This document shows positions 13,987-63,104 of a stretch of 64,000 nucleotides of DNA, in pieces. The notes beneath the pieces are model-generated. The model searched no databases and was not told the DNA's origin. It saw nothing but the letters and a program-made list of their open reading frames with translations. Location of the stretch: positions 33,136,329-33,200,328 of the forward strand of contig OZ024880.1 in NCBI GenBank assembly GCA_964017185.1, given 5' to 3'. A program made the position numbers and the translations under genes. This DNA is from Rugalucina vietnamica. Lineage: Eukaryota > Mollusca > Bivalvia > Lucinida > Lucinidae. Each line of letters opens with the position of its first letter. Positions within the stretch are counted from its first letter, which is position 1.

Positions 13987-14137
13987 ACCCAGCGGGCACA
14001 TGACGTCATTATGACGTCATATCAACGTCGATGCGACGTCATGACGTCGCATCGACGCCGATCTGACGTCATTATGGCGTCATGACGTCGCATCGACGTC
14101 TATCTGACGTCATTATGACGTCATGTGCCTGCTGGGC
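13987..14137. mobile_element. Palindromic element packed with TGACGTCA
   Basis: Ends cccagcgggcacatgacgtc and gacgtcatgtgcctgctggg are inverted. I count five TGACGTCA (CRE/ATF-type) octamers plus several near matches. A second, cleaner member lies at 40,700. Confidence 0.85.
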
Positions 14138-35785: not shown

Positions 35786-36455
35786 ACAAATGAGCTGCCG
35801 CAAACAAAGAAACGGGGCCTCTCTGATGCCTAGGTCACACTAGGGCTTACGTACGCTGCGGACGCTGCGGATAGGTGTTCCGTATCTGTCCGTCCTATCC
35901 GTAACGATTCGTATCTCATCCGTAATGTCCGTAACTGTACGTATCGTATCCTCAGGGCGCGGTAGATCCGCGGGCAAATTTTCATAACTGTCAAAAATGC
36001 ATGCGCGGATGGACGATCGGTAATGGTAGGCAATGGTACGTAACTGAAGGCATTTATTCGAATCTGTCCGTATCTAATCGCATCTAAACGTATCATTCCG
36101 CGATCAAGCATTTGTTGCGGATCGATACTGTTACATACGTGTTGTTTCGTTCGGTTGCGGTCTTTGTCGTTTATACACACTTTTCGATACAATTTAATAC
36201 GTTCAGATACGAACACGTAATGTTACGGTTTTCCTAAAGTTTACACAGCATGCCACGCGTATGAAAACGGAATCAAACCAGGATGCAACTTGAACAATGC
36301 TAATAAGCGTGTGGCTGAGCCCTCTAGAGCTGAGTGTTTGGGCATAACATAATCTGTATCCAATGCTTGATTGAATCTTACAAGAACGTTTCTGGAATAT
36401 ATAGTCTTCTTGACAAAAATGTCCGTCATTTTTCTATTATACAGGTGATTTATTT

Positions 36456-36950
36456 ATTTAAGGATATCCATAATTCACTTATGGATATCCATAATTCATT
36501 TATGGATATCCTTAATTCATTTATGGATATCCTAAAATAATTAAAGATATCCATCAATATTTTTGGATATCCTAAAACTGAATTATGGATATCCATAAAT
36601 GAATTATGGATATCCATAAATGAATTATGGATATCCTTAAATGAATTATGGATATCCATAATTGAATTATGGATATCCTGAAATACATTTTTGGATATCC
36701 AAAAATCACGATGAATTATGGATATCCATAATTCGATTTTTGGATATCCAAAAATCGAATTATGGATATCCTTAAATCAGCTCATTTAAGGCTATCCTTC
36801 AATGTGTTTTAGGATATCCAAAAATAAGCTTGAATTTAGGATATCCATAATTCGATTTTTGGATATCCATGATTCTTTTTTTGGATATCCATAATGATCT
36901 GATTTAAGGATATCCATAATTCGATTTTAGGATATCCATAATTCATTTTA
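36456..36950. repeat. GGATATCC array, block 1
   Basis: About 20 exact GGATATCC palindromes, mostly spaced about 22 bp, with AT-rich spacers such as ataattcattta, aaaatcgaatta and their inverses. Confidence 0.95.
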
Positions 36951-37088
36951 AAAAATATTTCTTTTCAATAATGATTTTTTCCGTGTAATACGCATGCGCT
37001 AACTTAAACTGAACGACGTAAATTCAACCACACCGGATGCCTCCATTCTCTGACTAGGGAGAAATCATTATATCCCATAGGCACGTAT

Positions 37089-37505
37089 GGGGTGCCGTTT
37101 TACTATTTATTTCCTATTTATGGATATCCATAATTCATTTTTGGATGTCCAAAATTCATTTTTGGATATCCATAATATATTTTTGGATACCCATAATTCT
37201 TTTTTGGATATCCTAAAATCGATTTATGGATATCCTTAATTTGGCTGAATATTGGATATCCATAAATTGATTTTAGGATATCCTATAATCGAATTATGGA
37301 TATCCTTAAATACAATCCTATTTTTGAATATCCATAATTCGATTTAAGGATATCCTAAAATCGGGCTAATATTGGATATCCATAATTCGATTTATCCTTA
37401 ATTGTTGTAGGATATCCATAAATGAATTAAGGATATCCATAAATACATTATGAATATCCTTAAATAAATTATGGATATCCAAAAATAGGGAATAAATAGT
37501 AAAAC
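37089..37505. repeat. GGATATCC array, block 2, bounded by inverted ends
   Basis: About 12 GGATATCC. Begins ggggtgccgttttactattt and ends aaatagtaaaacggcactcc (inverse). Outside both ends is cataggcacgta, a possible 12-bp duplication. Confidence 0.85.
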
Positions 37506-37534
37506 GGCACTCCATAGGCACGTACATCATTTTT

Positions 37535-37888
37535 TGTGATTTAAGGATATCCTTAAATGAATTATGGATATCCTTAAATACAGTCCTATTAAAGGAAATC
37601 CATAACTCATTTATGGATATCCATAAATCGAATTATGGATATCCAATATTAGCCCGATTTTAGGATATCCTTAAATCGAATTATGGATATCCAAAAATAG
37701 GATTGTATTTTAGGATATCCATAGTTCGATTTTAGGATATCCTAAAATCAATTTATGGATATCCAATATTCAGACGAATTAAGGATATCCATAAATCGAT
37801 TTTAAGTATCCAGAAATGAATTTTGGATATCCAAAATGAATTATGGATATCCATAAATAGGGAATAAATAGTAAAACGGCACCCCATA
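37535..37888. repeat. GGATATCC array, block 3
   Basis: About 12 GGATATCC, ending aaatagtaaaacggcacccc, the same terminal string as block 2. Confidence 0.9.
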
Positions 37889-38670
37889 TGATTGTTGGTT
37901 GATGCGTTCATTTACGGTGTAGATACGTTTGTGTTACGGTTTAGATACGGAAAGATTCGAATCAACGCCTTCATTTACATGTCATTACGTACTATTACTG
38001 ATGTTTCATCCGTGCCCAATTTTTGACTTTTTTCAAAATTTGGGCGCGGATGGAATCGGACTTGCATATACAATACGTTAAGATACGAACATATACGGAA
38101 AAGATACGAATTGTTACGGATATGACGGATAGATACGAAAGGTCAGTCCGCAGCGTCCGCAGCATCTGGATGTGCTAGTGTGACTGTAGTTTGACTAAAA
38201 CCTGCGTTTTCTTGCATCAAATTTCACCGTTATATACGCAAGAAAACGCAACATTACGTATCTGAAGGTGTATGTCTGTATCTAAAAGTAACAGATGGTA
38301 TCGAAAGGTATGTAGTCAAGTATCTTAACCGTATGTATTCGAATTTATCCTTAACTATCTTCGAACGTATCCGTATCTTTCCTGAACTACCCGTATTTAT
38401 TCGTATTTAAAGGTAATAAATTCATTAAGAACCGTTAGCTCCGCCCACAAAATTCTGCGGATCGCTACGTATAGTATTCGCAACTATCCGCGGCATCCGT
38501 AAGCGCTAGTGTGACCTAGGCATGAGTGCATTCATTTTTTTCGTCCATTTAGACATGTCAACAGCTAAATCTATGTTATTATTTATTGCACTAGAACATT
38601 GAATACGCTTCTGAAAAGCTCTCAGGCATACATGTGCTACACCTGAGAAGCCAAATAGGGACATTTACTT

Positions 38671-39250
38671 TTCGAAATAGGGAGAATGATTAAACAAAGA
38701 AGGAAATTCGTGATTTCAAATAGGGAGATCTGAAAATTTTAATTTGAAATAGGGAGATGTATAAGTTATATAGGGAAATTTTATATTTCAAATAGGGAGA
38801 TTTGCTCAAAAATAGGAAGATCCCTCCGAAATATCACATGACGATTGTATGCTCTCAGGTGGGGTTTTTACGAGAAAAAGAGGGTGAAAATTTATGCGTT
38901 TCTTTTGAACACAAATATTAAAAATATTCATTTTTTACATATTTTGTTTTTAATTTTACTGTTGAACAAAAATTGCTCTTCGAAATAGGGAGAATGATTA
39001 AACAAAGAAGGTAATTCTTGATTTCAAATAGGGAGCTCTGAAATTTGAAATAGGGAGATGTATAAGTTAGGGAAATTTGATATTTCAAATAGGGAGATTT
39101 GCTCAAAAATAGGGAGATCCCTCCGAAATAGGGAGATAACACATGTATGCTCTCAAAGCGGGTGAAAAATTATGCGTTTCTTTTGAACACAAATATTAAA
39201 AATATCCATTTTTTCATATTTTGTTTTTAATTTTACTGTTGAAAAAAAAA
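38671..39250 (+). repeat. Tandem duplication, 308-bp unit, with inner AATAGGGAGA repeats
   Basis: ttcgaaatagggagaatgat at 38,671 recurs at 38,979, and similarity continues to tttttaattttactgttga. Within each unit aaatagggaga recurs several times. Confidence 0.9.
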
Positions 39251-40699: not shown

Positions 40700-40809
40700 A
40701 CCCAGCAGGCACATGACGTCATAATGACGTCATATCAAAGTCGATGCGACGTCATGACGTCGCATCGACTTTGATATGACGTCATTATGTCGTCATGTGC
40801 CCGCTGGGT
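40700..40809. mobile_element. Near-perfect 109-bp palindrome with TGACGTCA motifs
   Basis: Ends acccagcaggcacatgacgt and acgtcatgtgcccgctgggt (close inverses), centre gcgacgtcatgacgtcgc. Three full TGACGTCA octamers. The same family as 13,987. Confidence 0.9.
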
Positions 40810-61084: not shown

Positions 61085-62248
61085 TAAACCACGACGAGAC
61101 GATGTGTCATGCACAAGAACCATAACTCTAGCTTGAGTATTTTTGGAGTTATTTCCCATTGATTATTTTCGATGCAATTTCGTGTCCGCTGTATAACTTG
61201 AAAACCGTTTAAGATTTTTCAATAAAACTTGGTACACTTATTAAGCATGATCAGACGATGTGTCATGGACAAGAACCATAACTCTGGCTTGAGGATTTTA
61301 TGAGTTATTTCCCTTTGATTATTTTCCATACAATTTCGTGTCCGCTCTATAACTCGAATACCGTAAGAGATATTTCAATGATACTTGGTACACGATTATA
61401 AAGCACGATGAGATGATGTGTCGTGCTAAAGAACCATAACTCTTGCTTGCATATATTTGGAGTAATTTCCCTTTGATTATTTTCTATACAATTTCGTGTG
61501 CACTCTATAAATTGAAAACCGTTAGAGAAATTTCAGTGAAACTTGGTACACTTATAAAACACGATGAGACGATGTGTCATGCACAAGAATAATTATTATA
61601 ACTCTTGCTTTCATATCTTTGGAGTTATTTCCCTTTGATTATTTTCCATACAATTTCATGCCCGCTCTATAACTTGAAAACTATATGAAATATTTCAATG
61701 AAACTTGGTACACTTATAAAGCACGATGAGATGATGTGTCATGCTAAAGAACCATAACTCTTGCTTTCATATCTTTGGAGTTATTTCCCTTTGATTATTT
61801 TCCATACAATTTCATGCCCGCTCTATAACTTGAAAACTATATGAAATATTTCAATGAAACTTGGTACACTTATAAAGCACGATGAGATGATGTGTCATGC
61901 TAAAGAACCATAACTCTTGCTTGCATATCTTTGGAGTTATTTCCCTTTGATTATTTTTCATACAATTTTGTGTCTGCTCTATAATTCAAAAACCATTGGA
62001 GATTTTTCAATGAAACACGGTACACTTATAAAGCATGATGAGACGATGTGCCATGCACAAGAATCATTACTCTTGCTTTCATATCTTTGGAGTTATTTCC
62101 CTTTTATTATTTTCCATACAATTTCGTGCCCGCTCTATAACTTGAAAACCGCAAGAGATATTTCAATGAAACTTGGTACACTTATTAAACAGAATGACAG
62201 GATATGTGATGCACAAGAACTATAACTCTTGCTTGCATATTTTGGACA
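61085..62248 (+). repeat. 156-bp satellite, about seven units
   Basis: gagttatttccc (one gagtaatttccc) recurs at 61,146, 61,302, 61,460, 61,622, 61,778, 61,934 and 62,090. Unit has cgatgagacgatgtgtcatg, aagaaccataactcttgct, ctctataacttgaaaacc and caatgaaacttggtacac. The 102-codon frame at 61,917 is the repeat. Confidence 0.92.
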
Positions 62249-62644: not shown

Positions 62645-62699
62645 ATCAAATGTCTCTGCGTTTCTTGATGTTGAATCGTACTTTAATCATGTTAATATT

Positions 62700-62869
62700 T
62701 GAGCCGCGCCATGACAAAACTAAAAATCTGCATATGCGAAAACAAAGACACAGATCAGCTGTGCAGTAATTGCACAGCCGATCAGCGCCCTTGTTTTCGC
62801 TATACGGATAGTAGAATACTTCTTCTTCTTAAATCCAAAATGTCAAGTTTCTAGCCTGCTTCTATAATT
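62700..62869 (+). mobile_element. M1 MITE, truncated, first of a tandem pair
   Basis: Starts tgagccgcgccatgacaaaa and stops after ctagcctgcttctata, where the next copy begins. Confidence 0.88.
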
Positions 62870-63104
62870 TGAGCCGCGCCATGACAAAACTAAAAATCTG
62901 CATATGCGAAAACAAAGACACAGATCAGCTGTGCAGTAATTGCACAGCCGAGCAGCGCCTTTGCTTTCGCTACACGGATAGTACAATTCCTCTTCTACTT
63001 AAATCCGAAATTTCAAGCTTCTAGCTCTTTTCTGTGCTTGTACAGGCCGGTTTGTGTCGGACCTGGTCGGAAACCACATTGTTGGTTACCCATCGGGCGG
63101 CTCA
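62870..63104 (+). mobile_element. M1 MITE, second of a tandem pair
   Basis: First 85 bp or so are the same as the preceding copy; full length to gttacccatcgggcggctca. Confidence 0.9.

What the first reader, a model, noticed from the sequence alone, without database searches (positions are those of the whole stretch)
36456..37888. About 44 copies of the palindrome GGATATCC in 1.4 kb
An 8-bp perfect dyad recurs at spacings often near 22 bp (about two helical turns), with spacers that are themselves often mutual inverses. Such phasing suggests a multimeric protein binding array, a nucleosome-positioning or cruciform-prone array, or a satellite grown by slippage inside a transposon. I know of no described element with this core.
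Basis: partly seen in the sequence, partly recalled or inferred. Interest (0 to 1): 0.85.

Follow-up and report, generated by a model that had tools for sequence, protein, structure and literature searches.

The report
Nested foldback-type transposons with palindrome arrays
The 44 palindromes are the repetitive arms of two small, non-coding jumping-gene copies, one inserted inside the other, and the palindromes look like preserved protein-docking sites; this appears to be a new family of a known kind of mobile element rather than a new kind of system.

Summary
GGATATCC occurs 44 times in the window, all in 36462-37852, against 0.55 expected. Spacing is 20-22 bp in 35 of 50 neighbouring pairs and 25-28 bp in 11. 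The array is not one satellite. It holds a complete 427-bp mobile element, Y (37088-37514), with 32-bp terminal inverted repeats (30 of 32 alike) and an exact 10-bp target-site duplication, TAGGCACGTA. Y sits inside an older relative, X (inferred), whose right end (37886) has the same terminal repeat. X lies in an unrelated repeat-armed element, O (35829-38520). This is the anatomy of a non-autonomous foldback element; the 10-bp duplication points to the Mutator/MULE superfamily. The unit is a 20-bp dyad, AWTTWWGGATATCCWWAAWT. Its core is nearly invariant among units (401 of 408 bases), while W positions swap A and T freely. Between Y and X's right arm, core and spacer differ equally (3 of 79; 7 of 185). 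That pattern suggests selection for a dimeric protein, most likely the transposase. Hairpin upkeep is not supported, and no common helical phase was found. Other copies in the host genome could not be searched. New member of a known kind.

The parts
35829..38520 (.). Outer element O: terminal repeats CCTAGGTCACACTAG at both ends, arms rich in CGTATC/CCGTA-type motifs. A second right-end-like sequence ends near 38184
   Evidence: Exact terminal repeats at 35829-35843 (+) and 38506-38520 (-); left arm aligns inverted with the right arm inward of about 38184, 286 columns at 74.5%; the only ORF of 120 aa or more inside it has 130 aa and no Pfam match
36455..36949 (.). Array A: 22 dyad units (20 exact cores), inferred outer arm of element X; its outer terminal repeat is missing. 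It holds an inverted pair of its own (36452-36542 / 36598-36688, 91 nt, 90%)
   Evidence: only three terminal-repeat matches in the window with up to 3 mismatches, none near 36440
36950..37077 (.). Non-array loop of element X (continues as 37525-37540 after Y)
   Evidence: inferred by removing Y and one duplication in thought
37078..37087 (+). Left target-site duplication of Y, TAGGCACGTA
   Evidence: exact; the 10-mer occurs only at 37078 and 37515 in the window, both strands
37088..37514 (.). Element Y, 427 bp, complete non-coding foldback-type element with 16 dyad units (12 exact cores)
   Evidence: as single-stranded DNA, 37089-37514 folds at -121.5 kcal/mol against -39.4 for 100 shuffles, z -19.0
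37088..37119 (+). Left terminal inverted repeat of Y
37483..37514 (-). Right terminal inverted repeat of Y (30 of 32 alike to the left one)
37515..37524 (+). Right target-site duplication of Y, TAGGCACGTA
37541..37854 (.). Array C: 13 dyad units (12 exact cores), right arm of element X
   Evidence: inverted match 37214-37395 / 37623-37804, 182 nt at 97%
37855..37886 (-). Right terminal inverted repeat of X

Best explanation
The palindromes form the arms of a family of small non-autonomous foldback-type DNA transposons, most likely Mutator-like (MULE). Shown: Y is a complete element with terminal inverted repeats and a 10-bp target-site duplication, lying among arrays of the same unit that end in the same terminal repeat. 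Inferred: these arrays are an older element X; each dyad AWTTWWGGATATCCWWAAWT is a binding site for a dimeric protein, most likely the family's transposase supplied in trans; many sites per end raise binding and specificity of end recognition. Inferred: tandem copying, unequal exchange, inverted duplication and short deletions change the unit number. Because the consensus unit reads the same on both strands, any array supplies two inverted arms, so internally deleted copies such as Y can keep usable ends. Y looks like such a derivative, inserted in inverted orientation into X's loop.
For: Y ends and exact 10-bp duplication (chance about 2e-6 per placement). Same 32-bp terminal repeat at three places. 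Y's left 308 bp matches the inverted right arm of X at 96% over 264 aligned bases, and Y's right end matches the inverted left end of A at 89% over 102 aligned bases, as an internally deleted copy would. Within arrays, core bases match in 401 of 408, position -4 is T in 51 of 51 and +11 is A in 50 of 51, while six W positions hold 303 A/T of 306 in near-equal shares. Between Y and X's right arm, core and non-core differ equally (3 of 79; 7 of 185; Fisher p 1.0) with 7 of 10 transitions, so the core's constancy seems to predate insertion. Muta1 of Aedes has 9 subterminal 12-bp repeats per end, and Galileo's transposase domain binds sites in its arm repeats (PMC5225508, PMC3688188).
Against: No transposase for this family was found; six ORFs of the window were scanned with Pfam and the host genome could not be searched. 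X has only one recognisable terminal repeat and no duplication. The arms of X cannot be shown to be inverted rather than direct: A against C scores 272 direct and 264 inverted. No binding data. Cores were picked by allowing at most one mismatch, which favours constancy; counting the two junction units (3 mismatches each) as decayed cores gives 13 of 424 changed, still far below the W positions. In the smaller comparison, Y's right end with A, core differs less than the rest (2 of 37 against 9 of 65, p 0.32), so even decay rests on few changes (pooled 5 of 116 against 16 of 250, p 0.48). A matches Y less well (89%) than C does (96%), so X may be a mosaic or Y's source another copy.
Confidence: 0.67

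Rival explanations
1. Neutral satellite: the array grew by slippage or unequal exchange inside a dead transposon; the palindrome has no function and its constancy is recent copying.
For: Tandem structure at about 21-22 bp and a 119-120 bp higher order; deletion junctions at 37390 and 37804; Tetris shows satellite growth from foldback arms (PMC4079207, abstract and first part of the discussion).
Against: Copying homogenises whole units, but adjacent bases differ sharply: 0-2 of 51 changed per core base against 16-22 of 51 at the W bases, and W positions hold almost only A or T (303 of 306), whereas 7 of 10 changes between Y and array C are transitions.
Confidence: 0.2
2. Host-factor array: the dyads bind a host DNA-binding protein (transcription, chromatin or silencing), and the transposon merely carries them.
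For: A long dyad with tolerated A/T-only positions is what a dimeric factor would select. In plants the related P1BS site is bound by PHR proteins (recalled; a PHR2 paper appears in the listing but was not read).
Against: Repeats fill both arms of Y up to the terminal repeats, as repeats do in other foldback elements; the window has no exact core outside the elements.
Confidence: 0.25
3. Cruciform- or hairpin-forming array kept for its secondary structure.
For: Y folds far better than shuffles (z -19.0), which follows from inverted arms; exact inverse spacer pairs (8) outnumber identical ones (3) and column-shuffled expectation (1.72); one of 11 core-flank distances shows weak co-variation (distance 8, 220 of 5000).
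Against: No clear compensatory change next to the cores (distance 1: 29 of 51 against 28.4; distance 2: 32 against 26.8, 381 of 5000); pairing across single spacers is at or below shuffle level at six of seven distances and barely above at the seventh (17 against 16.5).
Confidence: 0.05
4. Nucleosome-positioning or helically phased scaffold array.
For: Local pitch of 20-22 bp is near two helical turns, and positions are more coherent than random 15-30 bp spacings in each sub-array (13, 4 and 4 of 1000).
Against: The best period differs between sub-arrays (10.4, 10.3, 10.0 bp), the resultant at 10.5 bp is low in two of three (0.02, 0.14), and permuting the array's own intervals does as well in A and Y (786 and 170 of 1000), though not in C (7 of 1000).
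Confidence: 0.05

Closest known systems
Muta1 and other Aedes aegypti MULEs with subterminal tandem repeats (PMC5225508, passages read)
   Same: Long terminal repeats made of a terminal motif plus short tandem repeats; short non-autonomous derivatives with varying repeat number; 8-9 bp duplications
   Different: 12-bp tandem repeats with 3-4 bp spacers there, 20-bp dyads at 20-28 bp pitch here; transposase known there, not here; 10-bp duplication here
Tm1, Mutator/Foldback (Phantom) of root-knot nematodes (PMC3169594: abstract, section on terminal motifs, first part of the discussion read)
   Same: Composite terminal repeats with 1-9 units of a ~14-bp motif, mostly MITE-like members, missing ends in some copies
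   Different: Motif and terminal sequence differ; 9-bp duplications; units are not described as dyads in the parts read
Tetris of Drosophila virilis (PMC4079207: abstract and first part of the discussion read)
   Same: Non-autonomous foldback element with tandem repeats in the arms, 8-10 bp duplications, no transposase found
   Different: About 220-bp repeats, some expanded to satellites
Galileo (P superfamily) (PMC3688188: abstract and discussion read)
   Same: Foldback-like arms with several transposase-domain binding sites
   Different: P-type transposase (THAP) and arms of more than 1 kb; its duplications are recalled to be shorter than 10 bp
Tandem-repeat MITEs of bivalves (pearl/CvA, DTC84; PMC5139131 and PMC11136912, passages read)
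   Same: Non-coding mobile elements with internal tandem repeats, some with a conserved palindrome
   Different: Satellite-like repeats related to BIV160/Cg170, placed with Helitrons/Helentrons in part; arms of short dyads not mentioned in the passages read

Membership tests
Foldback-type non-autonomous DNA transposon (structural class) | Terminal inverted repeats with a target-site duplication | tested here: met
   Y: 30 of 32 bp, exact 10-bp duplication
Foldback-type non-autonomous DNA transposon (structural class) | Arms made of tandem short repeats, able to fold back | tested here: met
   16 units in Y; fold z -19.0
Foldback-type non-autonomous DNA transposon (structural class) | Several copies in the genome with the same ends | tested here: inconclusive
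   Y and X share an end; the genome search did not complete
Mutator/MULE superfamily | 8-11 bp target-site duplication (PMC6446971, passages read) | tested here: met
   10 bp for Y, one insertion only
Mutator/MULE superfamily | MULE transposase with the same ends | not testable with these tools
   Host genome not available; no recognised coding in the elements
Rehavkus | Transposase with PHD finger, 9-bp duplication, minisatellite before one terminal repeat (PMC6446971, passages read) | tested here: inconclusive
   Duplication is 10 bp in the one case; transposase unknown
Prokaryotic GGATATCC arrays (Bacteroidaceae MAG RGIG4776 and others) | Same extended dyad TTWWGGATATCCWWAA | tested here: not met
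   0 of 119 fetched loci hold it; shared core and pitch were imposed by the search pattern

The most novel reading that the evidence does not exclude
A foldback family whose ends are built wholly of units that are self-inverse by consensus, so that orientation carries no information inside the arms: any fragment of array plus a 32-bp cap can serve as either end, and a dimeric transposase assembles along a lattice of dyads. That would be a distinct end-recognition design, testable by footprinting.
Probability: 0.2. Interest if true: 0.5.

Novelty: new member of a known kind. Interest (0 to 1): 0.33.

Why it matters
Whether the tandem repeats of Foldback and Phantom arms bind transposase was called untested in the Galileo paper (PMC3688188, 2013, discussion). 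The base-by-base conservation pattern here, a near-invariant dyad among freely drifting spacers, is sequence evidence in favour and names the bases to test. It also shows how a striking palindrome array can arise from ordinary nested transposons.

Tried and rejected
One common helical phase: not found. Cruciform upkeep by compensatory change: not seen beside the cores. One large element 37088-37886: rejected, because its two flanks (TAGGCACGTA and TATGATTGTT) share no duplication, whereas 37088-37514 has an exact one. A duplication for X: only an 8-mer with one mismatch at 36331 and its 10-mer extension with two, not next to the array, rejected. Inverted against direct arms of X: undecidable. 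RNA families at gathering threshold and tRNAs: none in the window. Pfam on six ORFs: nothing above a curated cut-off. Relatives in viral contigs: the three-core pattern gave one contig; the terminal repeats of Y/X and of O gave 0 each. Relatives in genome contigs: 118 prokaryotic stretches, 87 in one MAG, none with the extended motif. Paper searches for strings: GGATATCC, 458 papers of which 15 titles were seen, none on a transposon; O's terminal repeat, 38 papers of which 8 titles were seen, none on a DNA transposon. The host was not identified; an animal, perhaps a mollusc, is a guess from recall.

Full report
What is there. GGATATCC occurs 44 times in the 64-kb window, all between 36462 and 37852; 100 shuffles give 0.55 on average and never more than 3. 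With one mismatch allowed there are 70 in the window, 51 of them in 36440-37900. Neighbours lie 20-22 bp apart in 35 of 50 intervals and 25-28 bp apart in 11; the other four intervals (36, 42, 72, 192 bp) cross junctions, terminal repeats or the loop. Tandem Repeats Finder reports the basic period of 21 and a higher order of 119-120 bp, matching runs of spacings such as 22, 22, 26, 22, 27.

Anatomy. A 21-bp probe from the terminal sequence hits the window three times with up to 3 mismatches: 37091 (+), 37491 (-) and 37863 (-). The first two bound element Y, 37088-37514, 427 bp, flanked on both sides by the exact 10-mer TAGGCACGTA, which occurs nowhere else in the window. By base composition such a match has a chance of about 2e-6 per placement. 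Y's two terminal repeats agree in 30 of 32 bases, read from the ends printed. The third terminal repeat ends at 37886 and closes array C. Taking Y and one duplication away in thought leaves array A, a non-array loop of about 154 bp (36950-37087 and 37525-37540) and array C; I call this older element X. X lacks a recognisable left terminal repeat and a duplication, so X as a whole is inferred.

Relation of Y to X. Y's left part (37088-37395) matches the inverted array C at 96% over 264 aligned bases (10 differences, three blocks, gaps of 1 and 43 bp), and Y's right part matches the inverted left end of array A at 89% over 102 aligned bases (11 differences) (also the 182-nt, 97% pair). This is what an internally deleted member of X's family, inserted in the opposite sense, would give. 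The odd cores at 37390 and 37804 (3 mismatches each) fall at the deletion junctions of these alignments. Against a simple story: A is less like Y than C is, so Y's source may be another copy, or X a mosaic; A also holds an inverted pair of its own, 36452-36542 with 36598-36688 at 90%. Whether X's arms are inverted cannot be told: A against C scores 272 direct and 264 inverted.

The surrounding element. X and Y lie in an unrelated element O with terminal repeats CCTAGGTCACACTAG at 35829 and 38520, arms rich in CGTATC-type motifs, and a second right-end-like sequence near 38184. The only ORF of 120 aa or more inside O has 130 aa and no Pfam match. O's target-site duplication is unresolved.

The unit. 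Over 51 cores the 30-base majority sequence is its own reverse complement. Conserved positions: the 8-bp core (401 of 408 bases), T at -4 (51 of 51), T at -3 (47), A at +10 (45), A at +11 (50), A at -6 (46) and T at +13 (47). Between them lie six positions (-5, -2, -1, +8, +9, +12) that hold A or T in 303 of 306 cases in near-equal shares (157 T, 146 A). The exact full motif AWTTWWGGATATCCWWAAWT occurs 28 times. The contrast between neighbouring bases is not an alignment effect, since no gap lies between them. Picking cores by at most one mismatch favours constancy; adding the two junction units as decayed cores gives 13 changed of 424, still low.

Why selection is the better reading. If units were only copied, core and spacer would diverge alike. 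Between Y and array C they do: 3 of 79 core bases and 7 of 185 others differ, 7 of 10 by transition. In the smaller comparison, Y with the left end of A, it is 2 of 37 against 9 of 65; pooled, 5 of 116 against 16 of 250, p 0.48. Numbers are small, so this step is suggestive. Within the arrays core and W positions differ sharply, and the tolerated changes are A/T swaps. So the core was probably held constant while the family was active and has decayed evenly since.

Structure and phase. Bases flanking the cores show no clear hairpin co-variation: 29 of 51 against 28.4 at distance 1, 32 against 26.8 at distance 2 (381 of 5000 shuffles reach it); one of 11 distances, 8, falls under 5% (25 against 19.2, 220 of 5000). 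Phasing is local only: each sub-array is more coherent than random 15-30 bp spacings (13, 4, 4 of 1000), but at different periods (10.4, 10.3, 10.0 bp), and order matters only in C (7 of 1000 permutations of its own intervals reach the observed value; 786 in A, 170 in Y). The strong fold of Y (z -19.0) follows from its inverted arms and says nothing more.

Mechanism, with what is shown. Shown: insertion of Y (ends and duplication) and the conservation pattern. Inferred: the dyads are docking sites of a transposase supplied from elsewhere. Known parallels: Muta1, an active mosquito MULE, has nine 12-bp subterminal repeats in its 145-bp terminal repeats, and 10 of 12 long-repeat families there have such repeats (PMC5225508, passages); the Galileo THAP domain binds several sites in its arms, and that paper calls the question untested for Foldback and Phantom (PMC3688188, abstract and discussion). 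MULE duplications are 8-11 bp (PMC6446971, passages).

Controls from other genomes. The three-core pattern found one viral contig and 118 stretches in prokaryotic genomes, 87 of these in one Bacteroidaceae MAG. Over the 119 loci the median spacer G+C is 0.57 (above 0.5 in 91, below 0.3 in 3), against 0.14 in the window, and none holds TTWWGGATATCCWWAA. So core and pitch, which the search imposed, very likely arose independently. The host's own genome could not be searched.

Verdict. A real and tidy array, explained by nested foldback-type transposons, probably MULE-like; a new member of a known kind with an informative conservation pattern. That no published element carries this core rests on two sequence-string paper searches and five topic searches in an open-access library, of which only the listings shown were seen; transposon libraries such as Repbase were not available.

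Noticed in passing
87 of the loci L002-L119, records JAFUSD01 (Bacteroidaceae bacterium RGIG4776): One roe-deer reticulum MAG holds at least 87 stretches with short arrays (3-7 exact cores per locus) of a GAGGATATCCTC-like dyad at mostly 22-bp pitch. They resemble the window array in core and pitch only and may be a bacterial dispersed repeat family.
   Followed up: partly
38653-39133: 11 copies of AAATAGGG on the + strand next to the elements, 19-43 bp apart with one gap of 193 bp; the same octamer stands at the inner edge of Y's right and X's right terminal repeat.
   Followed up: no
14001-14123 and 40714-40784: Two clusters of the palindrome TGACGTCA (5 and 3 copies, both beginning with steps of 11 and 52 bp), perhaps copies of another palindrome-rich short element.
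   Followed up: no
38150-38520: O has two right-end-like sequences, near 38184 and at 38520, as if one O-type element had inserted in or recombined with another.
   Followed up: partly
61085-62246 and 62697-63025: Tandem repeats of 156 bp (7.4 copies) and 170 bp (1.9 copies).
   Followed up: no
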